In this document: piece by piece, positions 7,683 through 64,000 of the stretch | How positions within the stretch are numbered: the stretch's first letter is position 1 | How the letters are laid out: every line of letters starts with the position of its first letter | Assembly (NCBI RefSeq): GCF_000423205.1 | Contig: NZ_AUHN01000010.1 | Span: 62,001 to 126,000 of the forward strand | Direction: 5' to 3' | DNA length: 64,000 nt | Source of the DNA: Jonesia quinghaiensis DSM 15701 | Lineage (GTDB): Bacteria > Actinomycetota > Actinomycetes > Actinomycetales > Cellulomonadaceae | The notes under the pieces: generated by a model | What the model was told of the DNA's origin: nothing | Seen by the model: the letters and a program-made list of their open reading frames with translations, nothing else | Databases searched by the model: none | Program-made: the position numbers and the translations under genes

Positions 7683-7754
7683 TCCCGCGTAGCTCAACGG
7701 CAGAGCATCCGACTGTTAATCGGACGGTTACTGGTTCGAATCCAGTCGCGGGAG
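7683..7754 (+). tRNA. tRNA-Asn (GTT), copy 1
   Basis: 72-nt cloverleaf: acceptor tcccgcg/cgcggga with discriminator G, D arm gctcaacggcagagc, anticodon stem tccga/tcgga around ctgttaa (GTT), T arm ctggttcgaatccag. CCA is not encoded. Identical in all 72 bases to the copy 22 bp downstream. Confidence 0.97.
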
Positions 7755-7776
7755 CAACAACTTCATAGGGACACGA

Positions 7777-7848
7777 TCCCGCGTAGCTCAACGGCAGAGC
7801 ATCCGACTGTTAATCGGACGGTTACTGGTTCGAATCCAGTCGCGGGAG
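7777..7848 (+). tRNA. tRNA-Asn (GTT), copy 2
   Basis: Exact duplicate of the upstream tRNA-Asn, with 22 bp between the two genes. CCA is not encoded. It is followed after 4 bases by a perfect terminator hairpin, so the pair is probably one transcript cut by RNases. Confidence 0.97.
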
Positions 7849-7852
7849 CAGA

Positions 7853-53001: not shown

Positions 53002-55536
53002 CTATCTTCCTCCCTGTTGCACCGCGCACCCGTGGACCACCAGCTCGTCGCCCACTGCACTGATCTCAAAGTTGTGGCACGTGTCCGTCCGCAAGGGCAC
53101 TGCGGGTTGGTACATCGCCAAAGCATCTTTGTGGGGGTGTCCATAGGTATTTCCGCGCCCCACCCCAATGAGTACAGCATCTGGGTTAAGCACGTCCGCT
53201 AGTAGTTGACTTTGGCTTGCAGATCCGTGGTGCGACATTTTCACGATGCGTGTAGATGCCTGGCTGATGCGCACGGCCCCCTCGGCGGTCAGAGTGTTGG
53301 CTAGTCGCTCCTGAGCATCGTGTTCTACATCTCCAAGAAACGTCACACCTAGTGTGTGCTCACCACTCGTCAGCGTGAGATGGATGGCTAGTGAGTCATC
53401 ATTCCTGGTGTCTTGGCCTTGTTTGTCTCCCCGCACCACCGAGGGGGTTGTACTGGCCGGTACGGCGGGCCATAACGCGTCGTAGGTCAATGTGTCAGTG
53501 AGCTGCCGTGAAACCCCGGCATAGTCATAGCTGACTTTCGTCTGGTGGAACTGGGCCACCCGAGCCACCTGGTCCACATGCTCACCGGACCACGCACCAT
53601 AACGGTAAGACACAATGAGGTGATCAATAGGCACATGCTGCGCAACCTCTTCAAGCGCTCCCACATGGTCTTCGTGGGCGTGAGACAACACCAACGTAGA
53701 AATGCGGGTAACCCCCAGATCATCAAGACACGACGTCACGGACTGGCCAGGTGGACCCACATCAACCATGACCGTGTGCCCAGTAGAATCTTGAACCAAA
53801 AAAGCATCCCCTTGCCCCACATCGCAGGCGGCAACAACCCAGGCACCGTCAGGAGGATCCAACACTGTAGAAAGCCACGCAGGGCGAACCACGACAATAA
53901 CGATTGCGACAACAAGAACCCCAATCACCCGGATGAGGGCTGTGGAGGGTTTCATGAGTGGGGCTGCGGAACGCGGAGGAAAAACAGGAAAATCCATCAG
54001 CCGAGTCGTTGACACTAACCAGGTGGACCGGGCCCGTTGCCGCAACGACACCAGATGCTGCACCACCCGCCTCCCACCGCCGCTGAGAACCCCCACCACG
54101 ACCACCAAGACGGCCCCCACAGCAACAGCCCCGCCAATGCCCTCAAGCCACGGCACAGTAGCCGAAGGCCACGCCGCAAACGTTTGTGCAACCATCGCGA
54201 TCCACCACGTGGCACCACTGGCAGCATGAAAAAACAGCATCGCTATACCCGGCGCAACCGTCGACAACAGTGTGCCGGCAACAGCACACAGCGTCGCAGG
54301 AGCTAAAGCTAGGGTCGCCACAGCGTTCGCCGGCACGCTGTACAACGACACCGACGGTTCCAACAGAATAAGAATCGGTGTACACGCAATCCAGGCAGCA
54401 AGAGGAACAGCAAGAAACGCAGCCAACCCGTAAGGCATCCAACGCCGTGGACGTTGCGGGCGGTGCAGCCACACCGCCAACGGGCGCGTTCCCACAATGA
54501 GCCCCGCAGTAGCAACAACGGACAACACAAAACCGTAATGTACTGCTAACTGAGGGTCCGCAATCAGCAAAACAATCACCGCCCAGGACAACGCTGTCAT
54601 CCCCTGATGAGGGCGACGCAACAACAACGCCAACACGGTAATACCTGCCATTGCCGCTGCCCGCATCACACTGGGTTGAGGTTGCACAAGCACCACAAAC
54701 ACAACCATGACTAAGCCAGCAAGAAGCCCCCTCAACCACACCGGTGTGCTCCGAAGCACAAGGAGCGCACACGTGAAAATCAGAGCAAAATGCGAACCCG
54801 ACACTGCAGTGATATGAGTTAAGCCCGTCACCTTCATGGCCGCGTCAAGTTCATCAGACATCAACGACGTGTCACCAATCGCAGTGCCTGGCACCAACCC
54901 TCGCGCCTGATCACTCATATCCGCGACCGCCGTCAGCGTCGCCGCCCGCAACGAGTTCGCCCACGCCGCCGTCCCCGAGGGGACCTGAAGAACCTCAACA
55001 CTGTCCGCTTCAAAAAAAGCATGCCGGTGACTTGGCGTGGGCGCCTCACGCACCGTTCCACACACAGACACCACACTGCGAAAATCCAACGGCTCCTGCG
55101 ACAAAACCATCACTGTCACATGCTGAACACTCAGATCGGCGTACCAAACAGGTCGCTGAGGTGTCGACGAAGACGTCGGGCGCGATGATCCCAAAACCAC
55201 ACCCTGCGCGCACACAGAACTCTCCTGCGCAGCAGCGTCATACCACCCCGCCTTCTCCGCGCGATACATCGTGCCCCACGCCGAAGCCAAAACCAGCATC
55301 GTGCACACCGCGGTCACCGCCACACCCACACAGGCAGCCAACACACGGCGAGACACCCGAGGAGAAACACTCCCCCAACGCCGCAGAACACACACCATCA
55401 CCACGGCACAAACCACAGCCACACAGGCAACCACCAGAACCCCCGGCAGCAACACATCACGGTGGTTCAGCGTGATAATCGCTGCGATCCATGGAACACC
55501 CGCTACCGGAACAAGGCGGTAGTCAATAACTTTCAT
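53002..55536 (-). CDS. comEC: ComEC/Rec2-family DNA uptake channel
   Basis: 844-residue membrane protein of the DNA uptake machine. An N-terminal hydrophobic part with an OB-like domain (to about 190), the Competence membrane domain (about 210-480, GLTHITAVSGSHFALIF near 238), and a C-terminal metallo-beta-lactamase-like domain with HAHEDH (619-624). The metal motif is intact, suggesting an active nuclease-like domain. Ends 38 bp before holA. Genes for a type IV-like pilus were not seen in the window, so competence itself is unproven. Confidence 0.93.
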   Translation of the reverse strand: MKVIDYRLVPVAGVPWIAAIITLNHRDVLLPGVLVVACVAVVCAVVMVCVLRRWGSVSPRVSRRVLAACVGVAVTAVCTMLVLASAWGTMYRAEKAGWYDAAAQESSVCAQGVVLGSSRPTSSSTPQRPVWYADLSVQHVTVMVLSQEPLDFRSVVSVCGTVREAPTPSHRHAFFEADSVEVLQVPSGTAAWANSLRAATLTAVADMSDQARGLVPGTAIGDTSLMSDELDAAMKVTGLTHITAVSGSHFALIFTCALLVLRSTPVWLRGLLAGLVMVVFVVLVQPQPSVMRAAAMAGITVLALLLRRPHQGMTALSWAVIVLLIADPQLAVHYGFVLSVVATAGLIVGTRPLAVWLHRPQRPRRWMPYGLAAFLAVPLAAWIACTPILILLEPSVSLYSVPANAVATLALAPATLCAVAGTLLSTVAPGIAMLFFHAASGATWWIAMVAQTFAAWPSATVPWLEGIGGAVAVGAVLVVVVGVLSGGGRRVVQHLVSLRQRARSTWLVSTTRLMDFPVFPPRSAAPLMKPSTALIRVIGVLVVAIVIVVVRPAWLSTVLDPPDGAWVVAACDVGQGDAFLVQDSTGHTVMVDVGPPGQSVTSCLDDLGVTRISTLVLSHAHEDHVGALEEVAQHVPIDHLIVSYRYGAWSGEHVDQVARVAQFHQTKVSYDYAGVSRQLTDTLTYDALWPAVPASTTPSVVRGDKQGQDTRNDDSLAIHLTLTSGEHTLGVTFLGDVEHDAQERLANTLTAEGAVRISQASTRIVKMSHHGSASQSQLLADVLNPDAVLIGVGRGNTYGHPHKDALAMYQPAVPLRTDTCHNFEISAVGDELVVHGCAVQQGGR

Positions 55537-55542
55537 CGCCGG

Positions 55543-56397
55543 TTACGTGGTAATCAAGTCAGCAACATTAGCCATAATCGCTGGCCCTATCCCACTCACC
55601 GCATCCAACCCATCAGGGGAGGTAAACGGACCATGCGCATCACGATGCGCAACAATCCGCCCCGCCAAGGCAGGCCCAATCCCCGGGAGCGCCTGTAACT
55701 CCTGTGCGCTCGCAGTATTGATGTTGATAGGTGCGGTTGGCGCTTGCTCGTTCGTATGTGCCGGTGGGTTTCCTGTTGTTGTGGCGGGCAGTGTTTCACC
55801 AGGTTGTGGAACAAGGATCTGCTCACCATCGGTGAGCGTACGGGCAAGGTTATGCGCCTCGATGTCAGCTTTTTTCGTCACCCCACCGGCAGCCTCAATG
55901 GCATCTGCGACACGGGACTGTTCAGGGAGCGAATATAGGCCGGGCTTCTTGACCTCGCCTGCCACATGAATGACTATTTCCGATGCGGCCCCCACCTCAG
56001 CGTTGCCGCCGCTAGGCACAGTCGCTGGCGCCGTTTCCTGTTGCGCGTCAGGCGCAGCAGCGGGGTCAGCGGCGGGGTCAGCGGCGAAATCCTCTTCTTG
56101 GTTATCTGTGAGGACTGCACCCGTCAAAGGTGTTGTGGCGTCCTGATAGGTGAGGAGTTGGTACCCGAGGAACAACGCGAGCGCCACTGTGATGACGATG
56201 CTTGCCGCACGAGCAGACAGCACCCATCGGTGGGTTCGGCGATGACGGGCTACAAGACCATCGTGTTCAAGTGGATGCCCGTGCGCTGCAGTATAAGCAG
56301 CGAAAACGGACTCACGAGCTGAAGTGAGCGCTGGGCGTGGAAGCGCATCATCATGACTTGTTGCGGGATCAGAATGGGTGTTGTCAGTGGTGGTCAC
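55543..56397 (-). CDS. comEA: ComEA-type helix-hairpin-helix protein
   Basis: Binds incoming DNA and hands it to ComEC. 284 residues: a membrane helix near 70-90 (ARAASIVITVALALFLGYQLL), an acidic Ala/Asp/Pro-rich spacer, an SLBB domain (about 145-195, IHVAGEVKKPGLYSLPEQSR) and a C-terminal helix-hairpin-helix pair (ININTASAQELQALPGIGPA onward). The long linker and the SLBB domain are typical of actinobacterial ComEA. 6 bp upstream of comEC. Confidence 0.92.
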   Translation of the reverse strand: MTTTDNTHSDPATSHDDALPRPALTSARESVFAAYTAAHGHPLEHDGLVARHRRTHRWVLSARAASIVITVALALFLGYQLLTYQDATTPLTGAVLTDNQEEDFAADPAADPAAAPDAQQETAPATVPSGGNAEVGAASEIVIHVAGEVKKPGLYSLPEQSRVADAIEAAGGVTKKADIEAHNLARTLTDGEQILVPQPGETLPATTTGNPPAHTNEQAPTAPININTASAQELQALPGIGPALAGRIVAHRDAHGPFTSPDGLDAVSGIGPAIMANVADLITT

Positions 56398-56533: not shown

Positions 56534-57391
56534 TCAACCAGCCGATGTCGTTGTCCGAGCCCACACAACGGCCAACGTACCAATACCTGTGTGCGCTGCA
56601 AGCACAGTGGACAGCGGCGCCACGACAACGTCCACACCTAGTACGTCACGCAATTCCTGAGCGAGGTCATCTGCCTGATCCGGGGCAACACAATGCTGCA
56701 CAGCAAACTGGTTTGCTCCACGTTCTTGAGCGCGCTGAGCTGCAACAATAAGTCGCTCAGTACCAGCAACCGCAGACCGCACTGCGCCGTGAGGTGAGAT
56801 GGTCCCGCCTTTGAGGCTGAGCATCGGGCGAATCCCTAGCCGCTGCCCTAACGCACCCATGGGAGCAGACAACCGCCCACCCGCCACAAGACGATCTAAA
56901 GTATCGACCAGAAACTCCGCGCCAGCGTGGCTACGCCACTTGGCAATAGTGTCAGCGATGCGGGCAGCGGACATTCCTTGGTCAGCAAGTCGCTGTGCTT
57001 CCATCACGAGAAAACCCAAAGACAGGCCCGCAACGGTGGAATCAATCACGTGAATACGCCCTGGCCATGCCCGAGCAGCAACTGCTGCTCGTTGACAGGT
57101 TCCCGATAGGTGCGCGGAAATATGCAACGAAATAATGTGTTCCGCACCACCCTTCAATGCGGCCGCATACGCTGCAGTGAACTGGGATTCAGCTGGTTGG
57201 GAGGTGCGCAGTGGCATACCTGCACGCAAAAAAGCTTCACAGTCTTGCGCGGTGAAATCAACATTCTCAGTGAACTCATGACCGTTACCGTGAACATGGA
57301 GATTAACGACCCGAACCGCACTGCTGCCAGTTGCCCCGGGGGGAAGGCACGCCGTGGAGTCGGTGACAATAACAATTGGTGAATCCTGCAC
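56534..57391 (-). CDS. DegV-family fatty-acid-binding protein
   Basis: 285 residues. N-terminal PIVIVTDSTACLP (6-18), PLRTSQPAESQFTAAYAAAL, and the lipid-binding block SLKGGTISPHGAVRSAVAGT. Family members (FakB-like) hold a fatty acid and present it to FakA kinase. No FakA gene is in the window; the partner must be elsewhere, or the role may differ. GTG start. It reads toward comEA; the 136 bp between hold nothing I can name. Confidence 0.85.
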   Translation of the reverse strand: MQDSPIVIVTDSTACLPPGATGSSAVRVVNLHVHGNGHEFTENVDFTAQDCEAFLRAGMPLRTSQPAESQFTAAYAAALKGGAEHIISLHISAHLSGTCQRAAVAARAWPGRIHVIDSTVAGLSLGFLVMEAQRLADQGMSAARIADTIAKWRSHAGAEFLVDTLDRLVAGGRLSAPMGALGQRLGIRPMLSLKGGTISPHGAVRSAVAGTERLIVAAQRAQERGANQFAVQHCVAPDQADDLAQELRDVLGVDVVVAPLSTVLAAHTGIGTLAVVWARTTTSAG

Positions 57392-57601
57392 CCTCGTAGA
57401 CTACCGCTTTCACGACAGGGCAGTTGTCACAGGAGGTAGCCGAAAGGTGGAGTGAGGTACAGGCAAAATAACCCTGCAGTCTGACGCGACAGCGCGTAGG
57501 GCACCGTAGGTTTGATCATGGGAAGATTGCTGGCGTTGTTCCCCAACTCTTCCTGAACACTCAGTCAAGTGCTATTGACGTTCACTCATGGAAGGGGCAG
57601 C

Positions 57602-58891
57602 ATGCAGGCAATCAGCGATTTTTATCAGCAGATGCGCCACATCGCTGTCGCTTTGACCTGCGTTGCTGCCGTAACGGCCCTTGCGGCGTGCACCCCTTCT
57701 CCACGCGAATCTCCAGACCCCACGGACCCAACATCCGCTCAACACCAAGCCGCTACTCACATCACTCATGGTGCTGGGCGCCTCACTGTTGTGGAATCTG
57801 ACAAAGCACAGACTGCTCTCAACGGACGCCAATTCAGTGTGATCCAAGAGTACTCCGGCGGGGACGGGGAGGACTTCTCGGCAGCGCAACTCACCGAAGA
57901 CGGTGACATTGTGGCGTTGGCCCGCGATACTGCTTCGGAGACTGGCAGTCGGAACGTGGGGCGAGTTGACTCGGGGAACTACCAACAAATAGCTGACACC
58001 ACAGTGTTTTGGGGCGGTCAGTTTCATGAAGTTGTGGCAGTCTCCACCACCTCAGAGACAACTGCTTGGCTAGAAAACACCGGTTCAGACGGATTCGCTG
58101 GTACTGATGCATGGAAACTCTTCATGCTTCATGACGGAGTAGTCCGAGAAGTTGCCTCCTCACAGGAAAACCTTCCCGATGTGACAAGCCCAGATTTCGG
58201 TGACCTCGTCGTTGCAACATCGGAAGACGGAACTCGATTCACCCTTGCTATCACTGGTGAAACTGCACCCCCAGACGGAGGTTCCCGCCACAAGCGCAGT
58301 TACCTCATTGAAGGATTAGTTGATCCCTTGATGTGGGAGGAGCCCGCTCAGCACACAACCCTCGCCGTCCACGACCTCGGGCAAACTCAGCTGGCCAGCG
58401 TTGTTCAAGACACTGCGTGGCAGGTGCAATCTTCTTCAGAAAATGGGGTCACCACCTTTGCGGTGTCCTCAACTGACCTGACCTCTGACTCCCCTGAACC
58501 TGTCCAGCGATTAGTGTACGAGCCTGGAGTGCGAGTGCACCATCACATCGTGTCTGACGGTTCAATGATTGCGGTGCGCGCAAGCATGGGTGGCGAGACA
58601 TGGATCGACATCATGACACCGCAAACCATGGACATCACCCGAGTGTTGTTGGACTCTGCCCCAGCCGATATCGCGTTGTGCGACGGGTTACTGGCGTGGA
58701 CATCACCGGCAGCTGATGACCGCTCCTCCCCCGTGTTTATTTTCACGACAGACACCGGTACGTTGTGGTCCACCGACGTCTCGGACAACTTGGGGTCCAT
58801 CGCCTGCCGTGACGGGTACATCATGTGGCAGGCGATGGATGCATCAGTTGATCAAGGTGCCACGGCCGTTGTGGTTGCTTGGCAAGAGTGA
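57602..58891 (+). CDS. Lipoprotein of unknown function
   Basis: 429 residues from the ATG at 57602 (ggaagggg upstream). A signal sequence ends in lipobox LAAC with Cys30, followed by a Pro/Ser/Thr linker. The mature part has repeated beta-strand-like segments (GDIVALARDTA, AWLENTGSDG, LAWTSPAADD, GYIMWQAMD), which suggest a beta-propeller-like surface protein. No enzyme motif. Its last 48 bp overlap the 3' end of the convergent jetC gene, where a jetD gene would normally sit. Function unknown. Confidence 0.75.
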   Translation: MQAISDFYQQMRHIAVALTCVAAVTALAACTPSPRESPDPTDPTSAQHQAATHITHGAGRLTVVESDKAQTALNGRQFSVIQEYSGGDGEDFSAAQLTEDGDIVALARDTASETGSRNVGRVDSGNYQQIADTTVFWGGQFHEVVAVSTTSETTAWLENTGSDGFAGTDAWKLFMLHDGVVREVASSQENLPDVTSPDFGDLVVATSEDGTRFTLAITGETAPPDGGSRHKRSYLIEGLVDPLMWEEPAQHTTLAVHDLGQTQLASVVQDTAWQVQSSSENGVTTFAVSSTDLTSDSPEPVQRLVYEPGVRVHHHIVSDGSMIAVRASMGGETWIDIMTPQTMDITRVLLDSAPADIALCDGLLAWTSPAADDRSSPVFIFTTDTGTLWSTDVSDNLGSIACRDGYIMWQAMDASVDQGATAVVVAWQE

Positions 58892-61800
58892 CTCTTGAAT
58901 AACGTGGTTGTCTTGTAGCTCTTCCTCGTTCTGCAGGTTTTCTTGGGTGTAGTTGATACCGGGTAGAGCAGCATCAGTGGCAAGAGACCATGTCAGTTGT
59001 GTGAGTCCTTTGCTGTCCTTCACAGTTTGCACCAGCAGTGACATGTGCGGTTCCAACGCTGAGACTTTATCCAACGGCGCACCCACAATGAGTTGGAACC
59101 CTAACCCTTTCCAGGCTGAGACACTTCGCCCAGCAAACCGCGAGTCGGCTTTGATGAATGCTTCATCGAGGAAAACTGGTGCATAACGTGGGCGGGCCGC
59201 GTCTGCGTCACCAAGCTGGTAACGCAGTGCGGCTCCAACAATAAAAGCCACGAGCTCTTGGGATTCGCCACCTGACTTTCCAGCGATGTGGTCAAACACG
59301 GAAACCTCAGTACCCTGCAGGTCAACTTTCATCGCATCTACCTTGACGTGTTCACGCACGTCGATGAGCCGCCGATGCTCAGGAGACTCTGGGCGGACAC
59401 GGTTCAGTAACGCAGCCATTCGGGCGTAGTGACGTTCCCTGTCAGCTGGTGCAGAGTCTGCACCAAGTTGGGTGGCGAGTTCTTTGAGTTCATGCCGGAA
59501 ACTACGGATGTCCTGTGATTCAGTGACTTTCGCGACGATCTTTAAGCGATGGTGGTCGTCTTGGAACGGCAGTTTCCACAAAATGTCATTGACTGGTTCC
59601 ATCCGTTGCCGAATTTCGTCGATTGCTTGCGATATTTGCGCGTTCAACGTGGTGAGTTCATGCCCTGACAACAGGGTGAGAGTTCGGTCCCACTTTTCGC
59701 GTAGTTCGTAGAGCCGTTGGTGTTCGAGTTCCGTCAGAATTCTTTCAAAGTCTTCGAACGACCTCTCCGGGTGGGACCCAACATTTGGGTTGGGCCACCG
59801 GGCAAGGAACTGAGTGAATACCCTTTCCAGTTCATGAAGCACAGATTGAACTTTTTCTTGCGCATGGTGTCGTTCAACCTGAAGTTCACGGATCATCGCG
59901 GTCACTGCGGCATCGAACTCTGCGATGCTACCGGCGTGGGATTGCTCCACCCGAGAATCCAGCAATTTTTCGATCCGGGGGTCAAGCGTGGTGTCTTCGA
60001 CGTTTTCTAGCCGGTCTTTCGCAGCGTCTTCAATGTCTACCAACCCCGCATAGGTTGCCTCGAGGTCTTCAATACGTGCTGAGGCGTGAGCTATGCGAGT
60101 GCGTACTGCAGAGAGCTGGGCGCTGATTTCGTTTTCTTCGCGTTTAAGTTGCGCAACGATGTCGCTGCCGGCTGTGATGTCTTCTAATTGCTGGCGGCGG
60201 TTTTCCGCGAGTTGTTGTGCGGCAGCGACATCAATGTTGTCCCAACTCACTGTCAAAATGTGTTCGTGCGCCCGCACGACATTGCGTAGTGTTGCTTGAG
60301 CCTCTGCAGCTGCGTCAGCGGCACCGGTCTCTTGCGCGATCTTCTCATCGCAGGCAGCTGCTTCAGCACTCAGGGCAACAATGGCGCCGTCGTTGGAGAA
60401 ACCTAGCACGGCACGCGTGAGCCCCCCATGACTTCCCCGGCGCCCCTGGCTGGTTTGCCCGGTGACAGTTAATGCTTGCGGGTGGGAGTTCAGTTCTGCT
60501 GGGTCGTTGACACACACCAGGGCGAAAGATTGGAGTAGACGTTCTTGCAACCACCCGGTGAATCGCCCGCGGCGATACTCCAAACGCCCTGGGAGGAGGC
60601 GGCGGTCCTCGCATTCACTCTGAGGCATATGCGTGGGTACACCTTCAAAGGAGATCCTTCTGCGCAGCGTCAGTGAGTTAATGGCGCGGCGGAAATCAGG
60701 AAGTTTCTCCTCGTCAACAAGGAGGGTGACCGCAAACCCGCCAAGCGCAGCGGACAGTGCGGTACGCCATGTCTCATACTCGGCCCGTACTTCAACGAGT
60801 TCTCCCACAAAGGGCAGATCGTGAGGTTCCATGCCGCATGCTGCGGCTAGTTGGCAGCGGGCCTCATGAAGTTCTGCTGGGATGTTTCCTTGGCGGGCGC
60901 GTAGTGACGACAACTGGGCCGCGATGTCATCACGGCGAGTTTGGGCCGCATCACGACGACGAAGCGCCTGGTAGTGCTGATCGCGTAACTCTTGTTCCCG
61001 TTCACTTAAACCGTTGAGGAATTCACGCGCTGTGCGTTGAACACTGTCAAAGTCGCGCCGTGTTGTCACCGTGGCATCTAAGGTGTGCAGGTGGCGATCC
61101 AGCGTCGAACGTGTCGCCTCTACCGTTCGTGCTGATTCCTCAAGACCGCGCAAATCGCGGGTGAGGGCGTCAACGCTATCCCCACCTTCGTTGCGGATTG
61201 AGGTTCGCACAGTGTCGAGTTGGGTATCTAACGCACTTTCTTGAGCGAGAGCTTGGGCACGTTCTTCCCGGTGCCTGCGAAACTCTTGCCTGTTGTTGGC
61301 AATTTCACTGCCCAACAGTGTCACGATGCGTCGGTCACGCCACACCGTGAAGGGTGAGGTGTCCGACGTGTCCGTGAGCAACCCAGCATCATCAATGGCG
61401 TGTAAGCCTTCTCGGGCCTGTTCGAGGCTACCTTTAAGTTCGCGAATTGGTTCCAGGTGCGCTACTTGTTGCTGTGCTGTCATCATTTCTTGGCGGACAG
61501 TGCTGAGCTCATCAAAGTGCGCCACCGCTTTGGCAGCGGTGTCGAAGGTGGCTGGTTCTTCTAACACCATCTGCTTATACAAGGCGTCAACGGTAGATAT
61601 GTGTTGGCCTGCTTGGATTCTGGCAAGCAGTTGCATCGCTTTTGCCCCACCACCTGCAGCACCAATTCCCAACGCTGAGTGGAGGCGAGTGAAGAACGCT
61701 GCATCCGTGTCATACAGGGTAAGTCCCTCCACCTGGGTGAGGGTGCGTTTGGAGAACCTGCCCTGTGCATGGGACACCAACCTGCGCAGGTCAAACTTTC

Positions 61801-62296
61801 CCTCCACTGTCGCCCGGTGGAAAACGCACTCATCGTTGCGCCGTGCACGGCGCGGAACATAGAAAATGCGCAACGCGGTCATGAGTGCGCCGCGTTGGTC
61901 ACGCCACGTCATCGCTACAGCGGACCAAGTGTCGCTGTCTCCGCCTCGTAACACCGTTTCAGTGGGGCCAGTTGCTGTTGGGCGATCATCTGTTTTGCCG
62001 CGCACATAACTGATGATGTTGCGTTGGTCTTGTCCTCGGGCGCGGCCTGATGTTGCAGAGTTTGACGCGCCGTTAAAGGGGGTGGTGTGGGGCATCATTA
62101 GCGCAATGTAGGCGTCAAGAAGGGTTGATTTTCCGGTCCCTGAACCACCGGAGAGTAGTGTTCCTTCTGGGTGGAAAGGCAGTGCGTGGTGTCCGTGGTA
62201 ACCGCCCCAGTTCACCAGTTGCAGGGACTCTGCCAACCATTGTTGGCCGGTAGATTCGCGGGGAATTAATCCAAAGAGCGAGTCAACAAATGTCAC
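58844..62296 (-). CDS. jetC: Wadjet-type SMC ATPase JetC (MksB/MukB-like)
   Basis: Motor of a plasmid-restricting condensin. 1150 residues from the GTG at 62296, overlapping jetB by 4 bp (GTGA). Walker A GGSGTGKS (50-57) near the N-terminus, long coiled coils with a hinge-like middle (about 500-600), then the ATPase C-end: SGGESQ signature (1008-1013) and Walker B PVFLDEA (about 1040-1046). A tail of some 45 residues after TWSLATD runs into the convergent lipoprotein gene. The family is also known as MksB. Third gene of jetA-jetB-jetC. Confidence 0.9.
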   Translation of the reverse strand: MTFVDSLFGLIPRESTGQQWLAESLQLVNWGGYHGHHALPFHPEGTLLSGGSGTGKSTLLDAYIALMMPHTTPFNGASNSATSGRARGQDQRNIISYVRGKTDDRPTATGPTETVLRGGDSDTWSAVAMTWRDQRGALMTALRIFYVPRRARRNDECVFHRATVEGKFDLRRLVSHAQGRFSKRTLTQVEGLTLYDTDAAFFTRLHSALGIGAAGGGAKAMQLLARIQAGQHISTVDALYKQMVLEEPATFDTAAKAVAHFDELSTVRQEMMTAQQQVAHLEPIRELKGSLEQAREGLHAIDDAGLLTDTSDTSPFTVWRDRRIVTLLGSEIANNRQEFRRHREERAQALAQESALDTQLDTVRTSIRNEGGDSVDALTRDLRGLEESARTVEATRSTLDRHLHTLDATVTTRRDFDSVQRTAREFLNGLSEREQELRDQHYQALRRRDAAQTRRDDIAAQLSSLRARQGNIPAELHEARCQLAAACGMEPHDLPFVGELVEVRAEYETWRTALSAALGGFAVTLLVDEEKLPDFRRAINSLTLRRRISFEGVPTHMPQSECEDRRLLPGRLEYRRGRFTGWLQERLLQSFALVCVNDPAELNSHPQALTVTGQTSQGRRGSHGGLTRAVLGFSNDGAIVALSAEAAACDEKIAQETGAADAAAEAQATLRNVVRAHEHILTVSWDNIDVAAAQQLAENRRQQLEDITAGSDIVAQLKREENEISAQLSAVRTRIAHASARIEDLEATYAGLVDIEDAAKDRLENVEDTTLDPRIEKLLDSRVEQSHAGSIAEFDAAVTAMIRELQVERHHAQEKVQSVLHELERVFTQFLARWPNPNVGSHPERSFEDFERILTELEHQRLYELREKWDRTLTLLSGHELTTLNAQISQAIDEIRQRMEPVNDILWKLPFQDDHHRLKIVAKVTESQDIRSFRHELKELATQLGADSAPADRERHYARMAALLNRVRPESPEHRRLIDVREHVKVDAMKVDLQGTEVSVFDHIAGKSGGESQELVAFIVGAALRYQLGDADAARPRYAPVFLDEAFIKADSRFAGRSVSAWKGLGFQLIVGAPLDKVSALEPHMSLLVQTVKDSKGLTQLTWSLATDAALPGINYTQENLQNEEELQDNHVIQESLLPSNHNGRGTLIN

Positions 62297-62946
62297 AGCA
62301 GGTCCCCTTGATCTGTGGTGGGTGTTGCGGTGTTTTCCGTCAACCACTGGGTAAGTTCGGTGAGGCGTGAAACGGGTAGAAGTATTTCGATCACTGATGA
62401 CACTTGGTAGCGCCCTGGTTCACGTTCCGTCATCACACCTTCACGGGTGAGCTGGTTGATGGCTGCTCGAATTTCGTGGTGACGTGCTGCCTGGTTTGTG
62501 TCATGTTGCGGGAAGAATGAGTCGGCGTAGTCGATGAGGTCTTCGGAGTCAACAAATACTGATTGGGCGCCAAGGGCAGCGTGTTGCCGGTAGACGGTGC
62601 GTAAGTGAATGAGCACAAGAGTTTCAACACGTTTGTATGCCTCGTCTTTCAGGAGGATCGGAACGTGGGTGTCCTCCAGCCTCACCTGTTGTTTATAGGC
62701 AATGTCGTAGTTGCGATCAACGATGAGGGTGAGGAACATGTCGTGAAACCGGGACTGCAACAGGTCTTCATGCGTCAAGATCGCTCGCCATACTGCAGGG
62801 TGATTCGCCCGGTCTACGAAGCGTTTTTGGAGCAGGAGCGCTAATGCACGGCGCGCTTCACTGGGGAGTTGGCCGCGGTCAGCGTCAAAAAGAATCGTTT
62901 GCGGAGCTTCCACCGGTGTGGTGTCGACAAAAGGCTCATCACTCAT
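62293..62946 (-). CDS. jetB: Wadjet subunit JetB (DUF4194, MksE-like)
   Basis: Kite-like partner of JetC. 217 residues with winged-helix elements, notably EIRAAINQLTREGVMTEREP and VSSVIEILLPVSRLTELTQW at the C-terminus, as in DUF4194. Cytoplasmic. It overlaps jetA and jetC by 4 bp on each side, so the three are translated as a unit. Confidence 0.85.
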   Translation of the reverse strand: MSDEPFVDTTPVEAPQTILFDADRGQLPSEARRALALLLQKRFVDRANHPAVWRAILTHEDLLQSRFHDMFLTLIVDRNYDIAYKQQVRLEDTHVPILLKDEAYKRVETLVLIHLRTVYRQHAALGAQSVFVDSEDLIDYADSFFPQHDTNQAARHHEIRAAINQLTREGVMTEREPGRYQVSSVIEILLPVSRLTELTQWLTENTATPTTDQGDLL

Positions 62947-64000
62947 GGGGTTTCTCCGTGTTCTACCTGTGCGAGGCCAACCGTGTGGCGGGGAATATAA
63001 AACTGACGACGTGTCCCGTCATGGCGGATCGCGGTGACTGTGTCGACCTGGTGCGCCTCCCCAGGTGTTTCAGTGGTCTGTAAGTTCTTGCTTGTGAGCG
63101 CCATTTCTTGGAAGCCAAGAATTTCCACGGGGCGTTGCAGATCAGGGGAACTCTGGGCAAAAAGTTGGGCAATTGTTACTGCCTCTTGCCGAGCAAGTGC
63201 TGCTTGGAATGCGCCATGAATCGCTTCGTGTTGTGGCCCACCCAAGGCCAGCATGTCATCCAGTGCCATGCCTGAGACCTCTTCACGAGGCGCATCAAGA
63301 TGATCAGGAACCGGTGTAGCCCCCAAATCGGCGAGAGTAGTACGTAACCGCCCCAGTGCTGCGCGTTGGAACCGTGGCATCGCGTCAACTCGGTCTCCGC
63401 GATGTGATTGTTCGAACCATCGTGTCAGTGCGGTAACTGTTGACCGTAGCGCTTCGTCAAGTTCGCGGTCGCGCAATGGGTTGTGGTGGGTGATGTTCGC
63501 GGTGAGGGTGCGTGAGGCACGTTGTTGTTCTGTGAGGACCACATTGACAGAATCCAGGATGGACGTTTTGATCCCTCGTAGTGCAGCTTTGTCACGACTG
63601 TCCAACGCTCTAGCGTGTGGGTGGGAAAGTATCGCATCAATTGCTTGGTCAAGTTCATTGAGAAGGGTTTCATCGCGCAGGACATCAACGGCTCCGGTGA
63701 ATGCGCGGCCTTCTGGTGTGTGATGGAGGAGTTGCTCAGAGGCATCGAGGTACTCATCAAGCACATCTCCTGCTGGGCGGGAGTCTGAGCGTAGGTCGCT
63801 GAGGATAGACCGTTGGAGATCTTTGATTGACTCGGCCACGCGCGCAAAATCGGCGGGAAGTTCCCGTACCAGATAGCGCACGTTGTCCAGTTGCTCTTCC
63901 ATACGTTGCGGTTCAATGGTGGGCATTGGGGCACCTGCCCGCAGTGCATCGCGTTCCTGTGTGAGGCGTTGTATGTCGCGGTCGAGTTGGGTGATGCGCG
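62943..64000 (-). CDS. jetA: Wadjet subunit JetA (DUF3375, MksF-like), 5' end outside window
   Basis: Kleisin-type partner that bridges the JetC heads. 352 codons are visible; the frame stays open past the ATG at 63926 to the window edge, reading RITQLDRDIQRLTQERDAL, a coiled coil, so the real start is beyond 64000. The C-terminal DUF3375 part includes ALGRLRTTLADLGATPVPDH, DDMLALGGPQHEAIHGAF and ending RRQFYIPRHTVGLAQVEHGE. First visible gene of the operon; if jetD exists it could lie further right. Confidence 0.85.
   Translation of the reverse strand, partial: RITQLDRDIQRLTQERDALRAGAPMPTIEPQRMEEQLDNVRYLVRELPADFARVAESIKDLQRSILSDLRSDSRPAGDVLDEYLDASEQLLHHTPEGRAFTGAVDVLRDETLLNELDQAIDAILSHPHARALDSRDKAALRGIKTSILDSVNVVLTEQQRASRTLTANITHHNPLRDRELDEALRSTVTALTRWFEQSHRGDRVDAMPRFQRAALGRLRTTLADLGATPVPDHLDAPREEVSGMALDDMLALGGPQHEAIHGAFQAALARQEAVTIAQLFAQSSPDLQRPVEILGFQEMALTSKNLQTTETPGEAHQVDTVTAIRHDGTRRQFYIPRHTVGLAQVEHGETP

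What the first reader, a model, noticed from the sequence alone, without database searches (positions are those of the whole stretch)
58844..64000. Wadjet/MksBEF condensin operon without a neighbouring JetD nuclease
Three genes with 4-bp overlaps encode the JetA (DUF3375), JetB (DUF4194) and JetC (SMC ATPase) set of the plasmid-restricting Wadjet system. The JetC ATPase motifs are intact, so the motor should work. The usual fourth gene, jetD (TOPRIM/DUF3322-DUF2220 nuclease), is absent where it would be expected, downstream of jetC. Either jetD lies beyond the right edge, or this is a JetABC-only complex acting as a chromosomal condensin (MksBEF-like) or recruiting a different nuclease. That would be a new variation on a known system.
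Basis: partly seen in the sequence, partly recalled or inferred. Interest (0 to 1): 0.75.

Follow-up and report, generated by a model that had tools for sequence, protein, structure and literature searches.

The report
Nuclease-less Wadjet (JetABC) operon beside leuS
A three-gene DNA-loop motor related to a bacterial anti-plasmid defence has lost its DNA-cutting subunit but is kept intact at the same chromosomal spot across many related bacteria, which suggests it now does another job, probably organising DNA.

Summary
On the minus strand, jetC (58844-62347), jetB (62293-62946) and jetA (62943 to beyond the edge, ending at 64454 on the contig) encode intact type I Wadjet JetA, JetB and JetC with ATGA and GTGA overlaps. 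No JetD lies downstream (a convergent gene overlaps the end of jetC), upstream (leuS follows jetA directly) or anywhere in the 99.99% complete genome, by three profiles. This is not a lone oddity. In the family, 156 of 200 genomes have JetA but only 31 have JetD. The leuS-jetABC order, mostly with DegV and comEA/comEC downstream, recurs across many genera. Some relatives at the same locus still carry jetD, one keeps only its 3' remnant, and one sister pair shows jetD cleanly missing between conserved flanks. JetC in JetD-less lineages keeps every ATPase motif (52/52) and is under purifying selection (omega about 0.09-0.14 in fixed lineages, near that of leuS). The genome also has Smc-ScpAB. 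Best reading: a Wadjet-derived, vertically inherited, MksBEF-like accessory condensin whose nuclease was lost repeatedly. Nuclease-free MksBEF is already known in Pseudomonas, so this is a new member of a known kind. The chromosomal role is inferred, not shown.

The parts
62943..64000 (-). jetA (kleisin, DUF3375), 3' part; the gene continues past the window to position 64454 in window numbering (L001 9943-11454, 503 aa from the first start; probable start is the GTG after GAGGAG, four codons in)
62293..62946 (-). jetB (KITE, DUF4194), 217 aa; ATGA overlap with jetA; conserved N-terminal tail FVDTTPVE...LFDADRGQL
58844..62347 (-). jetC (SMC-type ATPase), 1167 aa from the first GTG, about 1150 aa from the likely GTG start at 62296 (GTGA overlap with jetB); Walker A, signature and Walker B intact
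57569..58891 (+). Convergent 440-aa lipoprotein-like ORF, no Pfam match, overlapping the 3' end of jetC by 48 bp: occupies the place where jetD would be. Its homologue is in the same place in G017 (L052)
56534..57391 (-). DegV-family gene, part of the conserved block around the operon
55543..56397 (-). comEA (SLBB and helix-hairpin-helix), part of the conserved block
53002..55536 (-). comEC-like DNA-uptake channel gene (named from its neighbours and sequence; not itself scanned against Pfam), part of the conserved block

Best explanation
The locus is a type I Wadjet motor (JetA kleisin, JetB KITE, JetC SMC ATPase) that descends from a JetABCD system and has lost the JetD nuclease. It is vertically inherited at a fixed chromosomal site beside leuS and kept by purifying selection. 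It most likely works as a MksBEF-like accessory condensin: two JetC heads bridged by JetA and JetB bind and reel DNA into loops with ATP, contributing to chromosome (or other DNA) organisation alongside Smc-ScpAB, without cutting. Shown here: gene identity, intact ATPase motifs, absence of JetD, conserved position, repeated jetD loss among relatives, purifying selection, presence of Smc and ScpA. Inferred: loop extrusion (from solved JetABC relatives) and the chromosomal role (by analogy with P. aeruginosa MksBEF).
For: Type I JetABC assignment; closest solved structures are Wadjet JetC and JetA. JetD absent from the genome by three profiles, also absent from the genus mate G017. Family: JetA in 156/200 genomes, JetD in 31/200; order: 100 versus 53 of 248. 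leuS-jetABC is conserved across about 27 sampled loci of many genera, mostly with DegV and comEA/comEC downstream; JetC and LeuS trees share 13 of 24 splits (0.26 by chance). JetD of leuS-linked and Cellulomonas-type relatives forms one group broadly matching the JetC tree, so jetD was probably ancestral. jetD is cleanly missing in L056 versus L119 with both flanks conserved; L120 keeps only the last ~90-100 codons of jetD beside an intact jetABC. ATPase motifs intact in 52/52 JetD-less JetC. JetC omega 0.087-0.143 in five JetD-less leuS-linked pairs, LeuS 0.09-0.17 in the same pairs. Some genomes hold both this locus and a complete JetABCD elsewhere (G025, G102, G144). Own genome has Smc hinge and ScpA.
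Against: No experiment shows what JetABC does without JetD in actinobacteria; in C. glutamicum the complete MksBEFG has no role in chromosome folding (PMC7083940). JetC evolves about twice as fast as LeuS, and between the two genus mates is only 58% identical against 81% for LeuS, faster than a strict housekeeping gene. Some JetA-free genomes exist in the family (44/200), so the operon is dispensable over evolutionary time.
Confidence: 0.6

Rival explanations
1. JetABC still restricts plasmids without JetD, either by extruding and sequestering small circles so that they fail to replicate or segregate, or by recruiting an unrelated host nuclease in trans.
For: JetABC alone recognises DNA topology in Wadjet (PMC10586767, PMC12287153). 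The JetB N-terminal tail is kept with and without JetD, so a partner surface may persist.
Against: No nuclease is conserved next to the JetD-less loci: neighbours are leuS, glycogen phosphorylase, a HerA-like helicase in opposite orientation, DegV and comEA/comEC. In C. glutamicum null alleles of mksG (the JetD homologue) lose the plasmid copy-number effect (PMC10123090). Genomes with both versions exist, so pure redundancy is unlikely.
Confidence: 0.2
2. The operon is a modular platform: jetD is a fast-evolving cassette that is lost and regained at the jetC 3' end, and the JetD-less state is a temporary phase of a defence system.
For: On the JetC tree the window clade needs 10-11 gains or 19 losses of JetD. 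JetD branches are much longer than JetC branches.
Against: JetD sequences of the clade form one group broadly matching the JetC tree rather than several unrelated sources. Both Jonesia-like species, g13, all g25 and the main Isoptericola/Luteimicrobium group lack it throughout, which is long for a temporary phase.
Confidence: 0.12
3. The operon is a decaying remnant of a Wadjet system.
For: jetD is gone, and JetC diverges faster than LeuS between the two genus mates.
Against: All three genes are open with translational overlaps, motifs are intact in 52/52 JetD-less JetC, and omega is about 0.09-0.2 for JetC.
Confidence: 0.03
4. A divergent or unassembled jetD exists elsewhere in the genome.
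For: The assembly has 12 contigs.
Against: Completeness 99.99%; no hit by DUF3322, JetD_C or the clade's own JetD profile at E<=1; the genus mate G017 is a single contig and has none.
Confidence: 0.03

Closest known systems
Type I Wadjet (JetABCD; MksBEFG of C. glutamicum; EptABCD of M. smegmatis)
   Same: Same JetA, JetB and JetC families, gene order A-B-C, overlapping genes, intact SMC ATPase motifs
   Different: No JetD/MksG TOPRIM nuclease in the operon or the genome; fixed core-genome position beside leuS instead of variable contexts
MksBEF of Pseudomonas aeruginosa (nuclease-free condensin)
   Same: Three-gene kleisin-KITE-SMC operon without the nuclease, co-existing with Smc-ScpAB; [quoted passage not shown]
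   Different: Arises inside actinobacterial type I JetABC, so probably an independent loss of JetD; direct phylogenetic comparison with P. aeruginosa MksB was not made here; no functional data
MukBEF
   Same: Same broad kleisin-KITE-SMC architecture; weak N-terminal match to the MukB profile (E=9.8e-5, just under the cut-off)
   Different: Much closer to JetC (E=4.8e-57) than to MukB (E>=4.5e-4) among solved structures

Membership tests
Type I Wadjet (JetABCD) | JetA DUF3375 kleisin, JetB DUF4194 KITE, JetC SMC ATPase in one operon | tested here: met
Type I Wadjet (JetABCD) | JetD nuclease (DUF3322 plus JetD_C/DUF2220 TOPRIM) in the operon | tested here: not met
Type I Wadjet (JetABCD) | Restriction of small circular plasmids by cleavage | not testable with these tools
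   needs transformation and cleavage assays
MksBEF-type nuclease-free condensin | Three-subunit kleisin-KITE-SMC operon without MksG/JetD | tested here: met
MksBEF-type nuclease-free condensin | Intact SMC ATPase (Walker A, signature, Walker B) | tested here: met
MksBEF-type nuclease-free condensin | Co-existence with Smc-ScpAB, as in P. aeruginosa | tested here: met
   SMC hinge and ScpA in the same genome
MksBEF-type nuclease-free condensin | Role in chromosome organisation or segregation | not testable with these tools
   needs deletion strains, Hi-C, microscopy
MksBEF-type nuclease-free condensin | Direct phylogenetic affinity to P. aeruginosa MksB | not tested
   the P. aeruginosa sequence was not retrieved
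MukBEF | MukB/MukE/MukF as the best-matching families | tested here: not met
   DUF3375, DUF4194 and JetC1 are the best matches; JetC of 8as8 far ahead of MukB

The most novel reading that the evidence does not exclude
In this actinobacterial family a plasmid-defence machine has been turned into a vertically inherited second condensin, by repeated loss of the JetD nuclease at one leuS-linked locus, with JetD-bearing, JetD-remnant and JetD-free relatives all still present to compare.
Probability: 0.5. Interest if true: 0.65.

Novelty: new member of a known kind. Interest (0 to 1): 0.48.

Why it matters
It has been proposed that MksBEF and MukBEF chromosome condensins descend from Wadjet defence by loss of the nuclease (PMC10586767), but the evidence is thin. 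Here one family holds the whole series within one JetC clade: jetABC with jetD, with a jetD remnant, and without jetD, the last kept under strong purifying selection. That makes the question testable: does the Wadjet motor act on the chromosome once the nuclease is gone? It also warns that counting JetABC genes overstates Wadjet defence: most JetA-bearing genomes in this family have no JetD at all.

Tried and rejected
jetD beyond the right edge: rejected, leuS is there. Weak JetD-profile hits at the jetABC loci of other JetD-less genomes were first taken for relics; they match only the first ~45-90 profile positions and lie in the 3' end of jetC read in another frame, because some aligned JetD ORFs were over-extended at the N-terminus; rejected. 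The HerA-like helicase and glycogen phosphorylase near the operon in some genera were considered as substitute partners; the helicase is in the opposite orientation and neither is next to jetC in the window genus. High omega values for some JetB pairs come from over-extended ORF starts and were not interpreted. An operon with leuS was considered: in several genera jetA starts within about 20 bp of the leuS stop, but in both Jonesia-like genomes a strong hairpin separates them, so it is not claimed here. The JetB IFDR motif reported to contact JetD (PMC10586767) could not be located with confidence, as the P. aeruginosa N-terminus was not shown and the primary paper is not held.

Full report
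What is there. The window is G000:C6:62001-126000 of a 3.04-Mb, 12-contig genome, 99.99% complete. Three minus-strand genes encode JetA (62943 to 64454 in window numbering, cut by the edge), JetB (62293-62946) and JetC (58844-62347). Pfam and PADLOC agree on type I Wadjet subunits, and the nearest solved structures are Wadjet JetC and JetA. jetA and jetB overlap by ATGA and jetB and jetC by GTGA. The ATPase motifs of JetC are intact. Genus: the only genus mate, G017, is a single contig of 2,749,646 bp, which I recall as the size of Jonesia denitrificans; that identification is from memory.

Where JetD is not. Downstream of jetC a convergent ORF overlaps its 3' end, so there is no room for a gene. 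Upstream of jetA lies leuS. Genome-wide, DUF3322, JetD_C and a profile of ten JetD proteins from the closest JetABCD relatives find nothing, the last at E<=1 and with a strong positive control. The same profile finds nothing in G017. There is one JetC in the genome, together with Smc (hinge domain) and ScpA.

Relatives. In 200 genomes of the family JetA is found in 156 and JetD in 31; in 248 genomes of the order 100 and 53. So nuclease-less JetABC is common in this part of the Actinomycetota. Gene maps of some 80 loci show two patterns. The window's type sits directly downstream of leuS, mostly with DegV and comEA/comEC further on, in many genera. Complete JetABCD loci of the other JetC groups sit in variable surroundings. 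Some genomes carry both (for example G025, G102, G144). Two further JetD-less groups exist elsewhere on the JetC tree.

History. On the JetC tree JetD-bearing members are nested within and scattered among JetD-less ones; the window clade needs 10-11 gains or 19 losses of JetD. The JetD sequences of this clade form one well-supported group that broadly follows the JetC tree, which favours an ancestral jetD and repeated loss. Two loci catch the loss directly: L056, compared with its sister L119, lacks jetD while the flanks on both sides remain, and L120 keeps only the last ~90-100 codons of jetD some 650 bp past an intact jetC; these two belong to the same JetC clade but not to its leuS-linked part, where L112 and L113 are the members that still carry jetD. 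LeuS and JetC trees of 27 leuS-linked loci share 13 of 24 splits against 0.26 in shuffles, with JetC evolving about twice as fast, so inheritance is largely vertical.

Selection. In JetD-less lineages the Walker A, signature and Walker B motifs are intact in 52 of 52 JetC sequences. For five leuS-linked JetD-less species pairs (L086/L094, L075/L077, L097/L098, L102/L104, L071/L098) JetC omega is 0.087-0.143, with LeuS at 0.09-0.17. One further leuS-linked pair, L060/L082, gives 0.19 for both. The complex is being kept for something other than cutting by JetD.

How it probably works. By homology JetA, JetB and JetC form an SMC motor that extrudes DNA loops; in Wadjet the stalled motor hands the DNA to JetD for cutting (PMC12287153, PMC10586767). 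Without JetD the motor can load, extrude and compact but not cut. P. aeruginosa MksBEF, believed to derive from JetABCD by JetD loss, contributes to chromosome organisation and segregation (PMC10586767, PMC7485682). I therefore favour an accessory condensin. Against this, C. glutamicum MksBEFG, which has the nuclease, does not organise the chromosome (PMC7083940), so the analogy is not proof.

Novelty. Nuclease-free MksBEF is known. I found no description of the leuS-linked actinobacterial group in the held library, though the library omits most subscription papers. The value lies in the natural series of jetD loss within one JetC clade.

Noticed in passing
window 62293-62946 and JetB of related loci: JetB of this clade has a conserved N-terminal tail, roughly F(I/V)xPVxMEEDPxxLFxGDxGTL, present with and without JetD; the other JetABCD groups of the family keep at most the LWxGDxGTL part. 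Possible partner-binding motif.
   Followed up: partly
L001 11455-11524 (just right of the window, between leuS and jetA): Strong hairpin in the leuS-jetA gap (z -3.1), with a different but equally strong one in G017 (z -2.85), lacking a T-run; other genera have almost no gap there.
   Followed up: partly
L057, L078, L096, L101, L103; and L058, L062, L069, L072, L084, L085, L087: Two further JetD-less JetABC groups in the same family, one at a conserved site beside an F420 ligase-like gene.
   Followed up: partly
L120 12211-12510 (oriented; G176): Truncated jetD remnant beside intact jetABC.
   Followed up: yes
order-level sample, genus g35 of family f11: JetA in nearly all sampled members but JetD in very few: another lineage of probable nuclease-less JetABC.
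   Followed up: no
window 7683-7849: Two tandem tRNA-Asn(gtt) genes.
   Followed up: no
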